From positions 1 to 25,328 of IMG/VR virus record IMGVR_UViG_3300030380_005305: a stretch of 25,328 nucleotides of DNA. One strand, 5' to 3'. The notes beneath the pieces are model-generated. The model saw nothing but the letters and a program-made list of their open reading frames with translations, was not told the DNA's origin and did not search any database. Shown piece by piece: positions 4,153 through 25,201 of this stretch. Source of the stretch: a virus. Position 1 is the stretch's first letter; every line of letters begins with the position of its first letter. The position numbers were made by a program, and so were the translations under genes.

Positions 4153-4169
4153 TAGGAGGTAACCTCCTA
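4153..4169 (+). promoter_or_regulatory. Ribosome-binding site sequestered in a perfect hairpin
   Basis: TAGGAGG (4153-4159), loop TAA, CCTCCTA (4163-4169). The AGGAGG site of the 4169 gene is completely paired with the 7-bp 3' arm, and the last stem base is the A of the ATG. The upstream stop codon is at 4147-4149, so a terminating ribosome would open the stem. This predicts that the 4169 gene is translated mainly after translation of the 3703 gene. Confidence 0.6.
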
Positions 4170-5137
4170 TGAGTGGATCAGGAACTTGGGGTGTCGGCAC
4201 ATGGGGTCAAAACCAATGGAATGATTTAGCAGATCCGTCTTTTACAGTAACGGGTCAAGCCCTCACTGCATCTTTAGGAAATGAAACAAGCTCAACTGAA
4301 GTTAATGTAGGTTGGGGTCGTGTTGAATGGGGAAAACAAGCTTGGGGTATCGCAGGTACTCTTATAGCTCCTGGTGATGCTGTTACCGCAAATCTTGGAA
4401 GTGTTACTACATCAGCTGGTGCTAACACAGGTCCATCTACAAATAACAATCAAACATTAACGACCGGTCTTGGAACCGTAACAGCTTTTGGTTTAGCTGA
4501 AGTATTTCCATCAGGTATTCCACTTACAAATAGTTTAGGAACAGTTGATGCTGGTCCTGACGCTATGGCAGTAGGTGACGCTGTTGTTGCAAGTCTTGGT
4601 ACTGTTGATGCATTTAATAATGAAGGTTGGGGCAGACTTCAATGGAGTATAAACGATTGGGGTGATGCTGGTAGTTCTGTACAAGTAGATGTTTCTGGAA
4701 TTGCAATGACTGGAGCTTTAGGAACTCCAACAGAAATTACAGGTAGTGCAACTATTGTTGCAAATACTTTAAACGTAGCTCAAATAACTTTAGGAGCTGT
4801 TGATCCTGCACCAGATGCAATGATTATTGGTGAACCAATGATTGCATCTTTAGGTACTTTAGGATTTAAAGGAGATGTTTTACCTGTACCAACAGGCTTA
4901 CCATTAACAGCTGGATTAGGAAGCGTAACAGTAGATTTAAATCAACAAGTAAATGTTACTGGAAATCCTTTATTAGCAAGGGTTGCTTCAGTATCTGGAT
5001 TTACAGATGTTACTGCAACTTTTAATGGTTTTGTGTTGACTACAACAGTAGGAAGTGGTAATGCTCTTATTTGGAACGAAGTAAACACAGGTTCCGCTCC
5101 AATAGATCCTCCAGGTTGGAGAGAGGTCGTTGCATAA
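4169..5137 (+). CDS. Repeat-rich virion protein with LG repeats and Trp-Gly inserts
   Basis: 322 residues built almost entirely from about 11 degenerate units of the type GxxLTxxLGTV. The Leu-Gly or equivalent pair falls near residues 36, 76, 101, 123, 143, 184, 208, 228, 250, 272 and 294, mostly 20-25 apart. Two longer spacings (40 and 41) contain Trp-Gly segments (GWGRVEWGKQAWG at 48-60; GWGRLQWSINDWG at 153-165), and the N-terminus has a third (GTWGVGTWGQNQW). This looks like a beta-repeat fibre or tail-appendage protein. It lies just upstream of the fibre and collar genes and ends in a terminator. Function is inferred from architecture. Confidence 0.7.
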   Translation: MSGSGTWGVGTWGQNQWNDLADPSFTVTGQALTASLGNETSSTEVNVGWGRVEWGKQAWGIAGTLIAPGDAVTANLGSVTTSAGANTGPSTNNNQTLTTGLGTVTAFGLAEVFPSGIPLTNSLGTVDAGPDAMAVGDAVVASLGTVDAFNNEGWGRLQWSINDWGDAGSSVQVDVSGIAMTGALGTPTEITGSATIVANTLNVAQITLGAVDPAPDAMIIGEPMIASLGTLGFKGDVLPVPTGLPLTAGLGSVTVDLNQQVNVTGNPLLARVASVSGFTDVTATFNGFVLTTTVGSGNALIWNEVNTGSAPIDPPGWREVVA

Positions 5138-6497: not shown

Positions 6498-6863
6498 ATG
6501 GCAACAAATGCAAATTGGACAATAATAATGGATGATAAAAAAATTGTTAAAAAAACAGGTGATGGAGCTGGAAACGCTTACATCATTGATGATAATGCTT
6601 TTTGGGCTACTACAGATTTTCAAAATATTTGGGCTATTCAAGCAGGGACTTCCAATGTTTCTGATGAAGTAGAACACAGAGATGGAACAGCACATTGTTC
6701 TTTAGCTGATGAAGGACTTGATCTTCAACAATTTATTAATAAATGGGATGCAGCTCATTTAGTTACAATACAAACTGATTGGGACAATGATAATGTTGAA
6801 GGTGAAAGCGAAGCAGATAAAATTTCTAGATTAGGACCAAGACCTACTTCTTATTCATCATAA
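6498..6863 (+). CDS. Hypothetical small acidic phage protein (121 aa)
   Basis: Starts MATNANWTIIMDDKKIVKK with AGGAG directly upstream. The protein is acidic and Trp-rich for its size (NWT, FWATTDF, NIWAIQ, NKWDAAH, TDWDND). No domain recognised. It is the last plus-strand gene before the minus-strand oxygenase block; its 3' end overlaps the convergent gene by 13 nt with no terminator hairpin between them. Its position after the collar gene suggests a tail-fibre accessory protein or chaperone, which is a guess. Confidence 0.6.
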   Translation: MATNANWTIIMDDKKIVKKTGDGAGNAYIIDDNAFWATTDFQNIWAIQAGTSNVSDEVEHRDGTAHCSLADEGLDLQQFINKWDAAHLVTIQTDWDNDNVEGESEADKISRLGPRPTSYSS

Positions 6864-7369
6864 CCTGTAAACTGCATTATAATTGAATATCTTTTCATAG
6901 AGTTTTTAGCTGCCCAATTCAAAGGAGCATGCAAAGCATTAGCTTTCCAAAAAATAGCCCTATTTTCTTTAAAACCAATATGAGTATTTAATTCATAGTT
7001 ATCATTATTTTTAACATAAAAACCGGTACCTTTATTAAGTTCTTCATTACCTTTTACATATACAATACCTTGAAATTCATTTTCTTTACATAAATCAGAA
7101 TGAGGTAAAGGTTTAGTTTTTGAAACTAATGTGTAAGAACACATTTCTAATTTAAGCTTTTTATTAATAAATTTATTAACTTTATTATTTAAATATATTT
7201 TATCTTCATTTTCTGCATCACATGAAAACCATAAATGACCACTAGGGTTACTATCTAAATAATTTCCTAACCAAGTATAAGGTAATAAAGGAAGTTTTTC
7301 TTTAAAATATTTTAATTTTGATTCTTCTAAAAAATTATCTATAATTCTTATATCAAATCCATTTTTCAC
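6851..7369 (-). CDS. 2-oxoglutarate/Fe(II)-dependent oxygenase (third of three)
   Basis: 172 residues with the facial-triad pattern of 2OG/Fe(II) oxygenases: His90-x-Asp92 (KPLPHSDLC), distal His147 (NALHAPLNW) and Arg160 (SMKRYSIIMQF), where the Arg would bind 2-oxoglutarate. The start is GTG at 7369, overlapping the TGA of the preceding minus-strand gene (GTGA), so translation is coupled. These enzymes hydroxylate or oxidise protein, nucleic-acid or small-molecule substrates using O2 and 2-oxoglutarate; the substrate here is not visible. It is shorter than most characterised members, i.e. essentially the catalytic barrel alone. Confidence 0.75.
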   Translation of the reverse strand: MKNGFDIRIIDNFLEESKLKYFKEKLPLLPYTWLGNYLDSNPSGHLWFSCDAENEDKIYLNNKVNKFINKKLKLEMCSYTLVSKTKPLPHSDLCKENEFQGIVYVKGNEELNKGTGFYVKNNDNYELNTHIGFKENRAIFWKANALHAPLNWAAKNSMKRYSIIMQFTGYDE

Positions 7370-7959
7370 CTTAACATCATCCAGGAAGTTAAAATATATT
7401 TTTCACCTAACAATGGAGGATTACCTCTATGAACATATGGAAAAGCAGCAGGCCATATAACTATTCTACCTGTTTTAGGTTTTACTCTTTTTGAAAAGTG
7501 TAAGAATTCTGTTTCACCACCTTCTTCTACATCATTTAAATATACAGAAAAAACAAAAGCTCTAGGTTCATTATCAAATCCCTTATTGTGTTCAATATGC
7601 CAAACATGATAACCTTCTGTAGGTAAAGTTTTTTGTATTTTTAAAGTGGTAAAATGAAAAGGAACACCATAAGCTTCTTTAGCTCCAGTATTATCTATGT
7701 AATGGTTAAAAGCTAAATCTAAATTAACCATCATAGATTTTAAATCTTCCCACCAAACATCTATATTATTACCATTTGCAAAAAATTGTTGATCTTGTTT
7801 TTGTAGTATAGATGCTTTTTCCATACCCATTCTATTAACAGTATTATTAAATTTATTTTGATTTTCGTATAGTTTAATAGCTTTGTTACATTCTTCTTTA
7901 GTAATGTAATTATCATATGTGCCAATAAAATTATTTATATTAACTGTTTTCTCTATCAT
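7366..7959 (-). CDS. 2-oxoglutarate/Fe(II) oxygenase, prolyl-4-hydroxylase-like (second of three)
   Basis: 197 residues. The core follows the prolyl-hydroxylase plan: GYHVWHIEH (about 116-124), RAFVFSVYLND (133-143), GGETEFLHF (147-155), PKTGRIVIWP (161-170), VHRGNPP (176-182) and KYILTSWM (187-194). Likely metal ligands are His121, Glu123 (or His118/His124 alternatives) and His177, with Lys187 as the 2-oxoglutarate ligand. Glu in place of the usual Asp of HxD is unusual but known in the superfamily. ATG at 7959 has an AAAGGA site and lies 13 nt after the previous gene. Probable hydroxylase; substrate unknown. Confidence 0.8.
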   Translation of the reverse strand: MIEKTVNINNFIGTYDNYITKEECNKAIKLYENQNKFNNTVNRMGMEKASILQKQDQQFFANGNNIDVWWEDLKSMMVNLDLAFNHYIDNTGAKEAYGVPFHFTTLKIQKTLPTEGYHVWHIEHNKGFDNEPRAFVFSVYLNDVEEGGETEFLHFSKRVKPKTGRIVIWPAAFPYVHRGNPPLLGEKYILTSWMMLR

Positions 7960-7972
7960 TTTTTTCCTTTAA

Positions 7973-8488
7973 TTATAACCAAGCTACAATATTTAACGCC
8001 GCTCTATTAGGAGCATTCTTAGGTGCTATACCTTTATGAAACAACTTACTTGGAAATACAAGTGCTTGACTAGCAACAGATTTTTTAAATATTGTTTCAT
8101 CATCTTTTACTCTAAAACTTGTTCCTCCATCATTATCACTAAAATTGTAAACAATTGAAAATGCTATGTCTTCAGGTCTATCTATATGATAATTCATTAC
8201 ACTATTTTTATTATAAAAATTCCAAAACACTCTATTAATACTTTTAAATTTAAGATGATATTTATCCCTAACAATATCAAAAATAAATAATCCAAATGCA
8301 TTAATATCTGTATTTGCACAAATGTTTCTATCTTCTTGAAAAGTCATTAATGTAAACCCTGCATCAGGATTTTTAAAATTATTATTAGTGTGATCTTTTC
8401 CAAAATACCAACCTTCAGCATTCATTAAAGAATCAATAACCCTATCATTTGTAGATTGAGGTATATTTGTATCAATTTCTGTTATCAT
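7973..8488 (-). CDS. 2-oxoglutarate/Fe(II)-dependent oxygenase (first of three)
   Basis: 171 residues. Catalytic pattern: His101-x-Asp103 (MNYHIDRPED), a GGTSF turn (121-125), distal His151 (KLFHKGIAP) and Arg162 (PNRAALNIVAWL). I placed the start at ATG 8488 (MITEIDTNIPQ), which has GAAAGG 6 nt upstream; a longer in-frame start at 8755 would overlap the divergent 8532 gene. It heads a three-gene minus-strand operon that interrupts the structural genes. Its sequence is clearly different from the two oxygenases that follow, so the three are not recent tandem duplicates. Confidence 0.8.
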   Translation of the reverse strand: MITEIDTNIPQSTNDRVIDSLMNAEGWYFGKDHTNNNFKNPDAGFTLMTFQEDRNICANTDINAFGLFIFDIVRDKYHLKFKSINRVFWNFYNKNSVMNYHIDRPEDIAFSIVYNFSDNDGGTSFRVKDDETIFKKSVASQALVFPSKLFHKGIAPKNAPNRAALNIVAWL

Positions 8489-8489
8489 T

Positions 8490-8518
8490 TTGTGCCTTTC
8501 ATTAAATTTCAATATACT
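8490..8518 (+). promoter_or_regulatory. Candidate promoter in the divergent gap, giving a near-leaderless mRNA
   Basis: TTGTGC (8490-8495), 17-bp spacer, TATACT (8513-8518) within the 43-bp gap between divergent starts at 8488 and 8532. Transcription would begin about 7 nt before the 8532 ATG, which has no Shine-Dalgarno. The -35 box is only 3/6, so this is tentative. The reverse strand is also AT-rich enough for a minus-strand promoter, but I see no clean one. Confidence 0.3.
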
Positions 8519-8531
8519 ATATAACACAATT

Positions 8532-10448
8532 ATGGCCTTAAAAAAAGTAGATTTTGCACCTGGTTTTAATAAACAAAGCGTACCTTCCGCTCTTCCTGGA
8601 CGATGGGTAGATGGAGATTTTGTGCGTTTTAGATATACCGCACCTGAAAAAATAGGTGGTTGGGAACAACTAACCGCCGCATCTAAAACATTACCAGGAG
8701 CAGCAAGAGCACAATTAACTTGGACCTCTTTAGCAGGTGAAAAATACGCAGCCATAGGAACTTCTCAAGGTTTGTTTTTATATTATGGTAATGATTTTTT
8801 TGATATTACGCCATTAGATACAGCAATTACAGGATGCACATTAACGACAGTTAATGGTTCAAATACTGTAACTGTAAATAAAGGATCTCATGGTTTAGCT
8901 AAAGGAAGATATGTAACATTATCTGGTGTAACTGTTACAGGTGCTTCAGACTATACACCTGCAGAATTACAACAAGTTTATGAAATACAAACAACTCCAG
9001 ATGTAGATAAGTTTACTATACTAGCTTCTAGAAATGAGGGAGGCACCGGTATGACTGCAGCAGGTGCTGCAACTGTTAATCCTTACGTTGAAGTAGGTCC
9101 TACTTTTCAAACTGCTGGTTATGGTTGGGGAACTTCCTCTTATGGAGATTCTACTTGGGGCACAGAAAGTGATACTAGTGATGTAATTTTAGATCCAGGA
9201 AACTGGAGTCTTGATAACTTTGGTCAAGTATTAGTTGCTACAATATTTAATGGCAAAACTTTTACTTGGAACGCAGGAGCATCTGGAGCTAGAGGCATTA
9301 GAGCATCATTAGCTACATCAGGTTTTTCTACTTCTGCTAATCCGACGGCTTCTAGATTTACTCTTGTATCTGACAGGGACAGACATTTATTTCATTTTGG
9401 AACTGAAACAACCATTGGTGATACAACAACACAAGATCCTATGTTTGTAAGATTTTCTAATCAAGAAGATTTAAATACTTATTTACCTACCTCTACCAAT
9501 ACTGCAGGAACATTTAGATTAGATACTGGAAATAAAATTACTGCAGCTCTTCAAGGTAAGGATTATGTTTTTGTTTTAACTGATAATGCAGCTTATGTAA
9601 TTCAATTTGTAGGTCCACCTTTTACTTTTAGTGTTAGACAAGTCGGCACAAACTGCGGATGCATAGGACAACATGCAGCTTCTTATGTTAATGGCGCTAT
9701 ATATTGGATGTCTAATGAAGGTGGTTTTTTTATGTATGATGGTACTGTAAAAGCCTTACCATGTTTAGTTGAAGATTTTGTATTTACTACACAAAATGGA
9801 GATTTAGGACTTAATTTTAATTCAGCAGATGTAATTTTTTCTTCACCAAATTCTTTATATACAGAAGTAAATTGGTTTTATCCAAAATCAGGATCAGAAC
9901 AAATTGATAGATGTGTAACTTATAATTATCAAGAAAATGTTTGGACTACTTCATCACTCGATAGAACTACTTACGCTGACCAAGGAGTTTTTGATAAACC
10001 TTATGCAACAGACTATGAGTCAACAACTACTCCAGTATTTCCAGACATTTTAGGAATTACAAATTTATATGGAGCATCCATATATTATGCTCATGAAGTT
10101 GGAAATGATCAAGTCAATAGTTCAGGTAGAACTTCAATTAATGCCTTTATACGATCTGGAGATTTTGATATTGATGATGGAGAAATATTTATGTCGATGA
10201 GAAGATTTATGCCAGATTATAAATTTTTAGTAGGTAATTCTAAAGTAACTTTATTTATATCGGACTACCCTTCAGATGCTCAATCAAGCTCACCACTTGG
10301 TCCCTTTACAATAACTTCTACTACTGATAAAGTCGACACTAGAGCGAGAGGAAGACTACTATCTTTAAAAATAGAAAACGATGCTGCAGGTGAAACATGG
10401 CGTTATGGTAGTTTTAGAATGGATGCTCAACCAGACGGAAGGAGATAA
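8532..10448 (+). CDS. Tail accessory protein, P22 gp10-like (DNA stabilisation / tail hub)
   Basis: 638 residues beginning MALKKVDFAPGFNKQ, followed by VDGDFVRFRYTAPEKIGGWE, the N-terminal signature of P22 gp10-type packaged-DNA stabilisation proteins (KPG-N...W...vRF..G.PEKIGGW). It is longer than P22 gp10, partly through a beta insert at about 100-185 (TVTVNKGSHGLAKGRYVTL...DKFTI) and a Trp-Gly segment (GYGWGTSSYGDSTWG, 196-210). ATG 8532 is used because an upstream in-frame start would lie next to the divergent gene. No Shine-Dalgarno is visible. It plugs the portal/tail in this phage type. Confidence 0.8.
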   Translation: MALKKVDFAPGFNKQSVPSALPGRWVDGDFVRFRYTAPEKIGGWEQLTAASKTLPGAARAQLTWTSLAGEKYAAIGTSQGLFLYYGNDFFDITPLDTAITGCTLTTVNGSNTVTVNKGSHGLAKGRYVTLSGVTVTGASDYTPAELQQVYEIQTTPDVDKFTILASRNEGGTGMTAAGAATVNPYVEVGPTFQTAGYGWGTSSYGDSTWGTESDTSDVILDPGNWSLDNFGQVLVATIFNGKTFTWNAGASGARGIRASLATSGFSTSANPTASRFTLVSDRDRHLFHFGTETTIGDTTTQDPMFVRFSNQEDLNTYLPTSTNTAGTFRLDTGNKITAALQGKDYVFVLTDNAAYVIQFVGPPFTFSVRQVGTNCGCIGQHAASYVNGAIYWMSNEGGFFMYDGTVKALPCLVEDFVFTTQNGDLGLNFNSADVIFSSPNSLYTEVNWFYPKSGSEQIDRCVTYNYQENVWTTSSLDRTTYADQGVFDKPYATDYESTTTPVFPDILGITNLYGASIYYAHEVGNDQVNSSGRTSINAFIRSGDFDIDDGEIFMSMRRFMPDYKFLVGNSKVTLFISDYPSDAQSSSPLGPFTITSTTDKVDTRARGRLLSLKIENDAAGETWRYGSFRMDAQPDGRR

Positions 10449-11134: not shown

Positions 11135-11312
11135 TATACATAAAATCGATTGTACAACTATAACAATTTATAGAAATACAGAGACAGGTGAAACTTCTAA
11201 AGAAAAATTAGAAGGACCAAATATTGTTACAGATGTGACAGTGCAGGTATCACCAAAAGGTTTAGATGTATTCCAGAAAGTTATGAATGAAAACAAGAAA
11301 CCAAAACCCTAA
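11121..11312 (+). CDS. Hypothetical 63-aa protein between structural and glycosyltransferase genes
   Basis: MKTDNIHKIDCTTITIYRNT, with a two-stranded beta-like pattern (TITIYRNTETGETSKEKLEG; TDVTVQVSPKGLDVF) and a Lys-rich C-terminus. It overlaps the upstream gene by 14 nt and the downstream glycosyltransferase by 26 nt, with GAGAG just before the ATG. The tight overlaps support translation as part of the same operon, though overlapping frames lower certainty. No function assigned. Confidence 0.55.
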   Translation: MKTDNIHKIDCTTITIYRNTETGETSKEKLEGPNIVTDVTVQVSPKGLDVFQKVMNENKKPKP

Positions 11313-12234
11313 AGGCGGAACCGAGTTACAACTTGGTTTTTTACATCAATACGTAGATAAAAATTTATTAGATCAAGTACAAATTTGTACTAGTGTACCT
11401 GGTAAAGTTCCTATTGATCCTAATAAACTTAATATACTTTGGCAAAAAAACTCTTACGATCAACCTAATTTATATCCGTGGTTTAAAGATAAAAATAATC
11501 ATCACAAATATGATTGGTATGTTTTTAATTCTCATTGGAATTATGAAAAATTTAGAATGATGTTTGGCATTCCTACTGAAAAATGTGTGGTTATTAAAAA
11601 TGGAGTTGAAAAAATAACACAATCTCCGCATTATGAAAAAGGTAAACCTATTAAAATAATTCATCAAAACACACCTTGGAGAGGACTTAGTATATTATTA
11701 GGTGCAATGCAGTTAGTTAAAAATCCATTAATTACATTAGATGTTTATTCTTCATGTGAAGTATATGGCAAAGACTTTATGGAAAAAAATGATCATAATT
11801 ATAAAGCATTGTATGAACAAGCTAAATCTTTACCTAATGTAAATTATATTGGATATAAACCGAACGAATACATTAGAGAGCATTTACAAGACTATAATAT
11901 GTATGTTTATCCTAGTATCTTTGAAGAAACTTCTTGTATTTCTTTATTAGAAGCAATGTCTGCTGGTTTATATAGTATAGTAACTAATTATGGAGCCTTG
12001 TTTGAAACAGGAGCAGAGTTTCCAATGTATATTCCTTATGATAGTAACTACAAAGCTTTAGCTGAAAAATTTGCATATGGTATTGCTGCCGCTGCAGAAA
12101 CTTTAGATAAACCTCAAATACACAGTCATTTAACTACTCAAGCTAGCTACACACAATTATACTATTCTTGGCCAAAGCAAGCCTCTGCGTGGACAACATT
12201 TTTAAAAGGAGCTCTTAATGCAAAAGCCAAATGA
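11287..12234 (+). CDS. Glycosyltransferase, GT-B fold, family 4-like
   Basis: 315 residues. An N-terminal KGGTELQLGFL (9-19) matches the donor-side loop of GT4 enzymes. The middle has IKNGVEK (103-109), where GT4 proteins often read 'NGVD'. The C-terminal domain carries YVYPSIFEETSCISLLEAMSAG (206-227, split here at the E-x7-E motif Glu214-Glu222), the nucleotide-sugar-binding signature. The N-terminus starts almost at the GGTE loop, shorter than the usual first strand, so the first domain may be trimmed. It overlaps the second glycosyltransferase by 17 nt. Donor and acceptor are unknown. Confidence 0.8.
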   Translation: MKTRNQNPKGGTELQLGFLHQYVDKNLLDQVQICTSVPGKVPIDPNKLNILWQKNSYDQPNLYPWFKDKNNHHKYDWYVFNSHWNYEKFRMMFGIPTEKCVVIKNGVEKITQSPHYEKGKPIKIIHQNTPWRGLSILLGAMQLVKNPLITLDVYSSCEVYGKDFMEKNDHNYKALYEQAKSLPNVNYIGYKPNEYIREHLQDYNMYVYPSIFEETSCISLLEAMSAGLYSIVTNYGALFETGAEFPMYIPYDSNYKALAEKFAYGIAAAAETLDKPQIHSHLTTQASYTQLYYSWPKQASAWTTFLKGALNAKAK

Positions 12235-13147
12235 ACCAATATGGTTTAATGTAGACAAAAATGAAACAGCCAATGATGATACTTATCAGACAATTAAAAC
12301 TAACACAGTAGAAAATAAAATAACTGAAATTAATTTAAGTACATCACCCCACAAAATTATGGTGTGCACTCCCTGTCATAGTGATGTTAGTATGCACTAT
12401 TGTCAAGCAGTGTTAAAATTTCAACAAGCTTGTTGGAAAGAAGGAATTTTATGTAGTTTTACTTTATTAAAATCATCATTAGTTACCCAAGGTAGAAATC
12501 TGTGTGTAGCAGAGTTTTTAAATCATAAGGACAATTATACTCATTTATTGTTTATAGACTCTGACATTGATTTTAGTCCGAAGTCTATTTTTAAAATGTT
12601 AGAGTTTGATAAAGATTTAATTAGTTTACCCTATCCAATGAAACTTTTAAGTTGGGATAAAATATGGCGAAGACTTAATACAAAAGAAGATGCAATTAAA
12701 AATGAAAAAGATTTAGCTACAGCAGGTTATACCTTTCCTGTAAAAGTAGAGGACCCTAATTCAATAACCGTAGACAAGGGATTAATGGAACTTACTCATG
12801 CTCCTACGGGCTGTATGTTGATTAAAAGAGAAGTAATTGAAAAGTTAATTAAACATCATCCAGAACTAGAGATATATCAACCTACCAATATTAATGGTAA
12901 AGAAGTTAAAAAAGATAACATGTATAACTTATTTGACACATTGCACGACCTTGAAACTAAAAGATATTTTGGTGAAGATTTTGGATTTTGTCAAAGATGG
13001 ACAGATATAGGAGGCAAAGTATATGCCTATATAGATGATCCTATTACTCATGTGGGAGAATATTCCTACACAGGTAGATTTAGAGATGATTTATGGCAAG
13101 CAGGACGTCCTGTCAAATCTGTTGACGATAGCAAAAAAATCAAATAA
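12218..13147 (+). CDS. Glycosyltransferase, GT-A fold, Anp1-like
   Basis: 309 residues. After a polar N-terminus, KIMVCTPCHSDVSMHYCQAV (46-65) begins the nucleotide-binding fold, VTQGRNLCVAEFL (89-101) follows, and LLFIDSDIDFSP (110-121) holds the metal-binding Asp114-Ser-Asp116. FGEDFGFCQRW (251-261) matches the catalytic region and His278 may complete the metal site. This arrangement fits GT-A enzymes of the Anp1/mannan-polymerase-like type found in phages. It is encoded with the GT-B enzyme by overlapping genes, so the two probably act on one pathway. Substrate not visible; could be a virion protein, DNA or host glycan. Confidence 0.8.
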   Translation: MQKPNEPIWFNVDKNETANDDTYQTIKTNTVENKITEINLSTSPHKIMVCTPCHSDVSMHYCQAVLKFQQACWKEGILCSFTLLKSSLVTQGRNLCVAEFLNHKDNYTHLLFIDSDIDFSPKSIFKMLEFDKDLISLPYPMKLLSWDKIWRRLNTKEDAIKNEKDLATAGYTFPVKVEDPNSITVDKGLMELTHAPTGCMLIKREVIEKLIKHHPELEIYQPTNINGKEVKKDNMYNLFDTLHDLETKRYFGEDFGFCQRWTDIGGKVYAYIDDPITHVGEYSYTGRFRDDLWQAGRPVKSVDDSKKIK

Positions 13148-23199: not shown

Positions 23200-23577
23200 A
23201 TGAAAAATAGTTTGTTGGTGCATCAACATCTTATTATACGTGCTGAAGCAATTAAACCTCCAGTAGATGAAGAACAATTAACAGAATGGATGAAAGAATT
23301 TGTTGATTCTATAAATATGAAAATATTTATGGGTCCTTATGTTAAGTATTGTAAAATGGAAGGTAATAGAGGTATTACCGCTGTTGCAATTATTGAAACT
23401 TCTCACATAGCTATGCATGTTTGGGATGAACCTAACCCTGCATTAATGCAGTTTGATGTTTATTCGTGTGGTGAGTTTGATGTAAAAGAAATTTGTGAAA
23501 AGATTAAAAAAGATTTTAATATACAAAAAATTGAATACAAGTTTTTAAATCGCGAAACTGGACTTGTAGATATTTAA
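23200..23577 (+). CDS. speD: SpeD-type pyruvoyl-dependent decarboxylase homologue
   Basis: 125 residues, the size of bacterial S-adenosylmethionine decarboxylase proenzymes, which make the aminopropyl donor for spermidine. GITAVAIIETSHIAMHVWDE (58-77) and FDVYSCGEFD (85-94) match the family: Ser68 would be the self-cleavage/pyruvoyl residue, His73 and Cys90 the other catalytic residues. The residue before Ser68 is Thr, where classical enzymes have Glu (ESH). No spermidine synthase is nearby. Some SpeD relatives decarboxylate ornithine or arginine instead, so substrate is open. Start at 23200 was preferred to 23134, which would overlap the membrane protein. An auxiliary metabolic gene. Confidence 0.85.
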   Translation: MKNSLLVHQHLIIRAEAIKPPVDEEQLTEWMKEFVDSINMKIFMGPYVKYCKMEGNRGITAVAIIETSHIAMHVWDEPNPALMQFDVYSCGEFDVKEICEKIKKDFNIQKIEYKFLNRETGLVDI

Positions 23578-23780
23578 CGACACATACAACCTATCATACT
23601 ACCACTATTATCATTCATTATATGTAAGTTTAAAGTATCTATATATCCCGTTAGTTTTAATCTAAGTATGTCACAAAGATCAAAGCAATCTATCTCACCC
23701 GTTATTACAATACCTTCCATCATTTGTTTTGTAACAGGAATTAATTGATACAGACCATCGTTTAAAATAATTAAATCCAT
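23574..23780 (-). CDS. Hypothetical 68-aa protein downstream of the helicase
   Basis: Starts within the last codons of the helicase gene (10-nt overlap), with GAGG upstream, and ends with a 4-nt convergent overlap with the speD-like gene. The sequence has many hydrophobic strands (LIILNDGLYQLIPVTKQMME; TGYIDTLNLHIMND) and four Cys residues, two in a C-terminal GCMCR. No family recognised; a small metal-binding protein is conceivable but unsupported. Genuine overlap with the helicase stop supports coupled translation. Confidence 0.5.
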   Translation of the reverse strand: MDLIILNDGLYQLIPVTKQMMEGIVITGEIDCFDLCDILRLKLTGYIDTLNLHIMNDNSGSMIGCMCR

Positions 23781-25201
23781 TGTTTTAATTCCTCTCCCAT
23801 GACTTCACTAGCTATATTAATTTTTTTACGTAAAGCTTTTACTATACGTTCATCTACAGTTTTTTCACATATGATATCTATGTAGGTCATTTTTCTTTTT
23901 TGACCTATACGATTTATTCTAGCCTCTGATTGAGTTCTTTTTTCTAAATCATATCCGTTAGAATAATAAATCATTACATTAGCTTCAGTAAGAGTAATAC
24001 CATAACCCCCTGTTTGTGGTGTACCCACTAAGAATCTAACTTTAGAATTTGGGTCCTGTATTTCTTTTATAGCTTTGGCTCTATCTTCAGTAGACGTAGA
24101 TCCATAATAAGTCATCACGGAACCCGGATATACTTTTTCAATTGCTTTAACTATAGAATCTATATCGTGTCTCCAATGAGCCCAGATAATAGCTTTACCC
24201 TCTACCTCTTCTAAGATGTCCATTAATGCATTGACTCTTTCATTCTTAATAATTTTAAGTGTACCATCATCAGCTTTAAAATGACCACAAGTAATTTGTT
24301 GGAGTCTCATTAATTGAACTAATGCTGTAGACGTAGTCATTAACTTGCCATCCATTTGCGCAAGAGCTACATTTTTCATTTGATCATAAATTTTTTGTTG
24401 CTCTTTACTTAACTGTATAATTCTTTTTTGATAAGTATAGTCTGGCAAATCTAAACAATCTTCTTTTAAAACTCTGTCTGAAAATAAAGCAATCTTATCA
24501 GATAGTTCTTGTAAATTTTGATAACCAACAGGAACCTTTGCACTATGAGAACCAAAGTTCATGGTTTTAAGTATAGCATATCTAGTTCTAAAAGCATAAT
24601 AAGAAGTAAAATCTAATAAACCTTCACCTAAAAATTCACATTGTTTATATAAATCTAAAGGCGATTTAGTTACAGGTGATCCTGTAAGAATTCTTTTGTA
24701 CTTAGCATACTGGCCCAAAGAACAAATATGTTTAGATCTCTTAGCATCAGGATTTTTTATAGTTGTAGACTCATCAATGGCCATCATAGTTCTATGGCAA
24801 CGTAAAAATTTAGCTGCAAACTCTACACCTTTAGATGTGCTAAATGCATCAACATTCATAATTAAAATATGAAGATCCTCTCCAGGTTCAAACAATGAAT
24901 CTAACTTTAATTGTTGTGATTTAGTAATGTTGGCTTGCCACAACACCATTTTTTTATCTATGTGGTTTACCATGTGTGTAGGTATTTCTGAGTCGAACCA
25001 GTTTTTATAAACACCTTTAGGCGCAACTAATAAAAACCCATTTATTTTACCTTTATCATAAAGCATAGATACGTTATCTATTAACACTTTAGATTTACCT
25101 GTACCCATTTCCATAAAGTATGCAAATAGTTCTTTGTTATGTGACTTCTTAAGCGCTTTCAATTGATGCGCATAAGGCTTAGTTTTAAATTTATAATCCA
25201 T
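23771..25201 (-). CDS. SNF2-like superfamily 2 helicase/ATPase
   Basis: 476 residues with the ordered SF2 motifs: Q-motif region PYAHQLKAL (9-17), Walker A MGTGKS (32-37), motif II DEST (143-146), motif III LTGSP (172-176), motif V GTPQTGGYGITL (393-404) and motif VI QSEARINRIGQ (424-434). DESx rather than DEAD/DEAH and the RIGQ motif place it with SNF2-like proteins. It is about the minimum two-domain core, without extra DNA-binding domains. Phage members are common and probably remodel DNA or displace proteins during replication or recombination. It is transcribed away from the 25266 gene. Confidence 0.88.
   Translation of the reverse strand: MDYKFKTKPYAHQLKALKKSHNKELFAYFMEMGTGKSKVLIDNVSMLYDKGKINGFLLVAPKGVYKNWFDSEIPTHMVNHIDKKMVLWQANITKSQQLKLDSLFEPGEDLHILIMNVDAFSTSKGVEFAAKFLRCHRTMMAIDESTTIKNPDAKRSKHICSLGQYAKYKRILTGSPVTKSPLDLYKQCEFLGEGLLDFTSYYAFRTRYAILKTMNFGSHSAKVPVGYQNLQELSDKIALFSDRVLKEDCLDLPDYTYQKRIIQLSKEQQKIYDQMKNVALAQMDGKLMTTSTALVQLMRLQQITCGHFKADDGTLKIIKNERVNALMDILEEVEGKAIIWAHWRHDIDSIVKAIEKVYPGSVMTYYGSTSTEDRAKAIKEIQDPNSKVRFLVGTPQTGGYGITLTEANVMIYYSNGYDLEKRTQSEARINRIGQKRKMTYIDIICEKTVDERIVKALRKKINIASEVMGEELKQWI

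What the first reader, a model, noticed from the sequence alone, without database searches (positions are those of the whole stretch)
6851..8488. Three different 2OG/Fe(II) oxygenases in an antisense operon inside the tail module
Three consecutive minus-strand genes each carry a recognisable Fe(II)/2-oxoglutarate site (HxD...H...R, HxE...H...K, HxD...H...R) and are mutually dissimilar. They are tightly coupled (13-nt gap, GTGA overlap) and split an otherwise continuous plus-strand structural operon. A single oxygenase is common in marine phages; three distinct ones as a cargo block between collar and gp10-like genes suggests a multi-step modification, or three substrates.
Basis: partly seen in the sequence, partly recalled or inferred. 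Interest (0 to 1): 0.65.

Follow-up and report, generated by a model that had tools for sequence, protein, structure and literature searches.

The report
Swappable oxygenase island in SAR11 phages
In a very abundant group of marine phages that infect SAR11 bacteria, one fixed spot in the tail-gene region always carries one iron/2-oxoglutarate oxygenase gene, nearly always on the opposite strand, accompanied by a quickly changing choice of other oxygenases (here two), so the virus keeps altering an unknown chemical modification step.

Summary
Three antisense genes (6851-7369, 7366-7959, 7973-8488) lie in the tail module and are Fe(II)/2-oxoglutarate (2OG) oxygenases: P2 by Pfam and PDB matches, P1 by predicted fold, P3 by profile only. 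They are mutually dissimilar. The interpretation needs revision. Comparison of 98 non-redundant slots shows a fixed antisense site between a 121-aa gene and a virion-protein gene. A P2 ortholog is present in all 98, including 46 retrieved without using it. The other positions hold 0-8 exchangeable genes. About 87% of slot genes are 2OG oxygenases; most others are carbamoyl-, sulfo- and methyltransferases and ParB-like genes. P1 and P3 are two of the swappable genes, not an obligate pathway with P2. A near-identical contig differs by one clean 584-nt oxygenase insertion. The usual partner 'ferrochelatase' of published work folds as a 2OG oxygenase with no ferrochelatase match, so that label looks wrong; PHROG 274 'DNA endonuclease V' likewise. 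Multiple 2OG oxygenases per marine phage are already published; the constant-plus-variable antisense slot I did not find in the papers searched. Substrate unknown; late modification of virion proteins or their glycans is my moderate-confidence guess.

The parts
7366..7959 (-). P2, constant member of the slot (family F0), prolyl-4-hydroxylase-like 2OG oxygenase with HxE...H...K site
   Evidence: PF13640 6.6e-11, PHROG 61 4.7e-46; PDB 3itq/5hv0 ~6e-7; H121, E123, H177, K187 invariant in 88/88 aligned slots; present in 98/98 slots
6851..7369 (-). P1, exchangeable 2OG oxygenase (family F7), HxD...H...R
   Evidence: invariant H90/D92/H147/R160 in 30 aligned sequences; AlphaFold2 fold matches PHD2, OGFOD1, PiuC, P. 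putida P4H
7973..8488 (-). P3, exchangeable 2OG oxygenase (family F13), HxD...H...R
   Evidence: invariant H101/D103/H151/R162; PHROG 274 2e-17; profile alignment to 2OG family F1; not modelled in 3D
8489..8531 (.). divergent spacer between the antisense operon and the virion gene; carries the AAAGG ribosome site of P3 and a TATATAA box near the start of the + gene
   Evidence: a 40-49-nt spacer in 61 of 98 slots, with CTTTCATT...TATATAA kept across most although the first antisense gene differs; promoter role inferred
7960..7975 (.). junction where contig L005 has one extra oxygenase gene (family F3, 584 nt longer) between otherwise ~99% identical P3 and P2
   Evidence: DNA alignment window vs L005
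6498..6863 (+). left border of the slot: conserved 121-aa gene of unknown function (UP), downstream of the tail collar gene
   Evidence: alignment A2; no Pfam or PHROG match
8532..10448 (+). right border of the slot: virion structural protein gene (DN)
   Evidence: PHROG 3287 E 9.8e-83

Best explanation
The three genes are one state of a variable antisense 'oxygenase slot' of HTVC027P-like pelagiphages. SHOWN: the site is fixed between UP and DN; one gene (P2/F0) is constant and under purifying selection; the flanking genes are exchanged as single genes or recurrent pairs (F1-F2, F6-F4), nearly all being mutually remote 2OG oxygenases; the genes are tightly packed in one direction like an operon. 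INFERRED: the operon is read from the conserved divergent spacer at the same time as the adjacent late virion gene. P2, a prolyl-4-hydroxylase-like enzyme, hydroxylates a protein made late in infection, most likely a tail or virion protein, or a glycan on it. The exchangeable oxygenases, with the occasional sulfo-, carbamoyl- and methyltransferases that typically act on hydroxyl groups, add or change further groups. Swapping them would change the chemistry of the virion or cell surface faster than the protein backbone evolves.
For: Slot and constancy: P2 ortholog in 98/98 non-redundant slots and in all 46 retrieved with UP only; an independent scan anchored on DN gives the same layout in at least 36 loci. 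Cargo: 350 of ~404 slot genes are 2OG oxygenases, mean 3.6 per slot (assignment by motif plus family Pfam/profile links, weaker for F21, F24, F26); 1-9 antisense genes per slot. Exchange: pairs with DN >= 97% identical have the same cargo in 35% and fully disjoint cargo in 26% (n = 23); below 97% the mean overlap is 0.13-0.18 at any DN identity; clean one-gene difference between window and L005. Selection: median dN/dS 0.16 for F0 and 0.22-0.5 for cargo families. Operon: 4-nt overlaps the most common junction. Fold class. Modification theme: NodU-type carbamoyltransferases, sulfotransferases, methyltransferases and a sugar epimerase among the cargo; a glycosyltransferase gene at 11287-12234 in the same module, also annotated in HTVC027P and HTVC023P.
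Against: No substrate, no activity and no virion mass data. Fold similarity to protein hydroxylases does not show a protein substrate; P1 and F2 models match small-molecule oxygenases (SnoN, OkaE) almost as well. Cargo content does not track the sequence of the neighbouring virion gene (r = -0.03), which gives no support for co-evolution with that protein. Timing of the three genes is not known; the HTVC027P transcriptome paper's main text does not report it. The spacer as promoter rests on sequence conservation only.
Confidence: 0.5

Rival explanations
1. Host-directed protein hydroxylases: the enzymes hydroxylate host translation or regulatory proteins (as PPHD does EF-Tu and OGFOD1/Tpa1 the ribosomal protein uS12/Rps23), tuning the host for phage production; the tail-module position only sets the timing.
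For: P1's best structural matches include PHD2, OGFOD1, Tpa1 and P. putida P4H bound to EF-Tu; P2 matches bacterial P4H.
Against: Conserved host targets would not predict such rapid exchange of many different oxygenases in one slot; substrate cannot be read from fold.
Confidence: 0.2
2. Glycan or small-molecule tailoring: oxygenases act on sugars, lipids or a small metabolite together with the carbamoyl-, sulfo- and methyltransferases, altering the cell surface (superinfection exclusion) or virion glycans.
For: Non-oxygenase cargo is largely group-transfer or sugar enzymes; a glycosyltransferase gene is in the same module.
Against: Most slots have only oxygenases; no complete sugar pathway is present.
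Confidence: 0.2
3. Auxiliary metabolism: draw-down of 2-oxoglutarate or nitrogen signalling, or heme/iron metabolism with a ferrochelatase partner, as proposed for cyanophages and pelagiphages.
For: Published proposals (PMC3037559, PMC9599517, PMC11561400).
Against: The 'ferrochelatase' partner (F2; PHROG 2954/3531 in 26/26) has no ferrochelatase Pfam match at E <= 1 and models as a 2OG oxygenase over its whole length. A general 2OG sink would not need many different families.
Confidence: 0.07
4. DNA or nucleotide modification or repair (PHROG 274 and 2297 are labelled DNA endonuclease V / DNA endonuclease).
For: PHROG labels of P1, P2 and P3.
Against: Clear 2OG family F1 also hits PHROG 274, 2297 and 3531, so these profiles contain 2OG oxygenases; no endonuclease V Pfam match.
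Confidence: 0.05

Closest known systems
HTVC023P-type pelagiphage 2OG-Fe(II) oxygenase / 'ferrochelatase' gene clusters (Wittmers et al. 2022, PMC9599517)
   Same: Same phage group; eight non-orthologous 2OG oxygenases reported; same type of partner gene.
   Different: There described as nearby but not adjacent, function unknown. Here: adjacent in an antisense operon at one fixed site with one constant member; further 2OG-type genes annotated only as hypothetical (gp72, gp74 of HTVC027P) belong to it; the 'ferrochelatase' models as a 2OG oxygenase.
Pelagibacter phage HTVC027P gp72-gp74 (MN698241)
   Same: Same site, strand and gene number; gp73 is the P2 ortholog (86% identity).
   Different: gp72 and gp74 are other families (F9, F3) than P1 and P3.
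Cyanophage multi-2OG repertoires (S-SCSM1 with 24 genes, PMC9602691; T4-like cyanophages, PMC3037559)
   Same: Many dissimilar 2OG oxygenases (pfam13640, 13759) in one phage genome.
   Different: The passages read do not describe a single antisense slot with a constant anchor.
Prolyl 4-hydroxylases / PHD-type 2OG oxygenases (B. anthracis P4H, PPHD, PHD2, OGFOD1)
   Same: Fold and active-site residues; P2 shares the YLNDVEEGGET signature.
   Different: P2 has Glu in place of the metal-binding Asp; substrates unknown.

Membership tests
2OG-Fe(II) oxygenase superfamily | double-stranded beta-helix fold | tested here: met
   P1 by AlphaFold2 and PDB comparison; P2 by PF13640 and PDB sequence matches; P3 only by profile alignment
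2OG-Fe(II) oxygenase superfamily | HxD/E...H metal triad and a basic 2OG-binding residue, conserved in the family | tested here: met
   invariant in families of P1, P3 and P2
2OG-Fe(II) oxygenase superfamily | Fe(II)- and 2OG-dependent oxidation of a substrate | not testable with these tools
   needs enzymology
Prolyl 4-hydroxylase (P2) | sequence relationship to characterised P4Hs | tested here: met
   3itq, 5hv0, 5iax E ~6e-7 over residues 97-194
Prolyl 4-hydroxylase (P2) | peptidyl-proline as substrate | not testable with these tools
   needs enzymology or mass spectrometry
DNA endonuclease V (label of PHROG 274) | sequence match to an endonuclease V family | tested here: not met
   Pfam at E <= 1 lists only DUF6445 (P1) and 2OG-FeII_Oxy_2 (P3); PHROG 274 is also hit by a clear PF13640 protein
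Ferrochelatase (label of F2, PHROG 2954/3531) | ferrochelatase sequence family and chelatase fold | tested here: not met
   no ferrochelatase Pfam match in 26 members at E <= 1; model pLDDT 91.7 aligns along its length to 2OG oxygenases, Z up to 16.6 over 166 residues
HTVC023P-type pelagiphage | syntenic genome related to HTVC027P/HTVC023P | tested here: met
   ~80% DNA identity over 75% of 4.6 kb to HTVC027P

The most novel reading that the evidence does not exclude
Probability: 0.22. Interest if true: 0.85.

Novelty: new variant of a known kind. Interest (0 to 1): 0.5.

Why it matters
[quoted passage not shown] Their 2OG oxygenases are reported as enriched in seasonal viral populations with a 'ferrochelatase' partner (PMC11561400), which here models as another 2OG oxygenase, so the proposed heme link would fall. 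A single-copy constant oxygenase in a cultured phage-host pair (HTVC027P on HTCC1062) gives a direct way to find the substrate of phage oxygenases, unknown in the papers I found.

Tried and rejected
Motif-only evidence: rejected as insufficient (15-36% of shuffles match the loose pattern). Reading PHROG 274 as DNA repair: rejected. Three-step pathway P1-P2-P3: rejected by independent occurrence. Host origin of P2: the only close hit in genome contigs is a 4.3-kb 'Maricaulis' MAG contig that is itself this phage slot, so probably misbinned. Literature searches for virion hydroxylation in phages found nothing relevant. First slot definition let duplicated collar genes in and was redone. Turnover figures on 97%-de-duplicated slots are biased against identical pairs, so the exact-duplicate-only count is quoted.

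Full report
OBSERVATION. The window is the first half of a 49.9-kb virus record whose nearest annotated relative is Pelagibacter phage HTVC027P. Motif matching alone would not have been convincing: a loose HxD/E...H...R/K pattern turns up in 15-36% of shuffled copies. Family evidence settles it for P1 and P2 and makes P3 very likely. P2 passes the Pfam 2OG-FeII_Oxy_3 cut-off and matches bacterial prolyl 4-hydroxylase structures. P1 has H90, D92, H147 and R160 invariant in 30 aligned sequences and folds (pLDDT 85) as a 2OG oxygenase, every listed PDB match being one. P3 has its four site residues invariant and aligns in register with a clear 2OG family. Between the three families there is no significant sequence or profile similarity.

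WHAT IT IS. I collected IMG/VR loci with the left neighbour (UP, 6498-6863), with P2 and with the right neighbour (DN, 8532-10448) as separate baits. In 133 loci holding both borders (98 after removing near-duplicates) the slot always holds a P2 ortholog, with one exception (L048) on the minus strand. All 46 slots retrieved by UP alone have it. Slots run from P2 alone (about 630 bp, 6 cases) to nine antisense genes. Of about 404 slot genes some 350 are 2OG oxygenases of more than 20 families at 45% identity. The rest are carbamoyltransferases, sulfotransferases, methyltransferases, ParB-like proteins, cupin/JmjC proteins, a sugar epimerase and nine unassigned genes. Some genes travel as pairs: F1-F2 adjacent 38 times, F6-F4 16 times. 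PHROG 3531 matches F2 in its first half and F1 in its second, as if the pair also occurs fused.

EXCHANGE. The window and contig L005 are about 99% identical over P3, P2, P1, UP and collar, yet L005 has one extra oxygenase gene (F3) cleanly placed between P3 and P2. Identity falls to roughly 80% on crossing into DN, so a recombination break lies in or near the spacer. Across loci, DN proteins at least 97% identical over their first 300 residues still carry fully different cargo in 26% of pairs; cargo overlap is otherwise unrelated to DN identity. All families tested have median dN/dS of 0.5 or less, consistent with purifying selection. A sister lineage (HTVC023P, 023Pt_psg01 and about 30 loci) has sense-strand clusters of several 2OG genes upstream of DN instead; L230 shows none.

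HOW IT WORKS. Shown: fixed site, constant P2, variable and mostly oxygenase cargo, tight gene packing, and a conserved divergent spacer, commonly 42-47 nt, that keeps the ribosome site of the first antisense gene across most slots whatever that gene is. Inferred: late expression alongside virion genes, and modification of a virion protein or a glycan by hydroxylation, with further decoration by the exchangeable enzymes. The P4H-like nature of P2, the tail-module position and the OH-dependent transferases among the cargo favour this. The lack of any substrate data, and the absence of correlation between cargo and DN sequence, hold confidence down. The structural and evolutionary description I hold at about 0.9; the functional reading at about 0.3-0.35; the combined statement at 0.5.

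ANNOTATION CORRECTIONS. F2 matches PHROG 2954 and 3531 'ferrochelatase' in 26 of 26 members but no ferrochelatase Pfam family at E <= 1. Its model (pLDDT 91.7) matches 2OG-type oxygenases throughout the listed rows, Z up to 16.6 over 166 residues. PHROG 2954 is the family named as ferrochelatase in PMC11561400, so the published oxygenase-ferrochelatase partnership in pelagiphages is probably a partnership of two oxygenases. PHROG 274 'DNA endonuclease V' is hit by 18 of 51 slot family representatives, including the clear PF13640 family F1.

KNOWN VERSUS NEW. Multiple dissimilar 2OG oxygenases in marine phages are published (PMC3037559, PMC9602691, PMC9599517), and structural likeness of phage 2OG proteins to human EGLN3 too (PMC12774648). 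What I did not find in the papers searched is the antisense slot with a constant member and swappable oxygenases. It is a new variant of a known kind.

Noticed in passing
own genome G000:C1:36500-37900 (+), outside the window (locus L169): A second, sense-strand cluster of three 2OG-type genes (F1, F2 'ferrochelatase' and a third) beside a peptidase-like gene; with the slot this genome has at least six oxygenases. F2 is single-copy in 9 of 10 related records checked and absent from HTVC027P.
   Followed up: partly
L056:5488-6018 (F2 family) and G000:C1:36846-37376: Genes annotated 'ferrochelatase' in pelagiphages fold as 2OG oxygenases.
   Followed up: yes
L048: The F0-F2-F1 part of the slot lies in the sense orientation while four other genes remain antisense, as if an inner segment had been inverted.
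   Followed up: no
L071, L145, L173, L174, L200, L201: Some contigs carry three tandem tail-collar-like genes next to the slot.
   Followed up: no
window 4169-5137; L005:9933-11276: Repeat-containing tail-region protein differs in length between close relatives (322 against 447 aa).
   Followed up: no
L250 (NZMJ01000062.1): A contig in a 'Maricaulis' genome bin is this pelagiphage slot, probably a misbinned phage contig.
   Followed up: partly
window 23200-23577 (+) and 23771-25201 (-): S-adenosylmethionine decarboxylase gene beside an SNF2-type helicase on the other strand.
   Followed up: no
window 11287-12234 and 12218-13147: A family-1 glycosyltransferase and an overlapping 309-aa gene with no Pfam match; counterparts are annotated at the same place in HTVC027P and HTVC023P.
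   Followed up: partly
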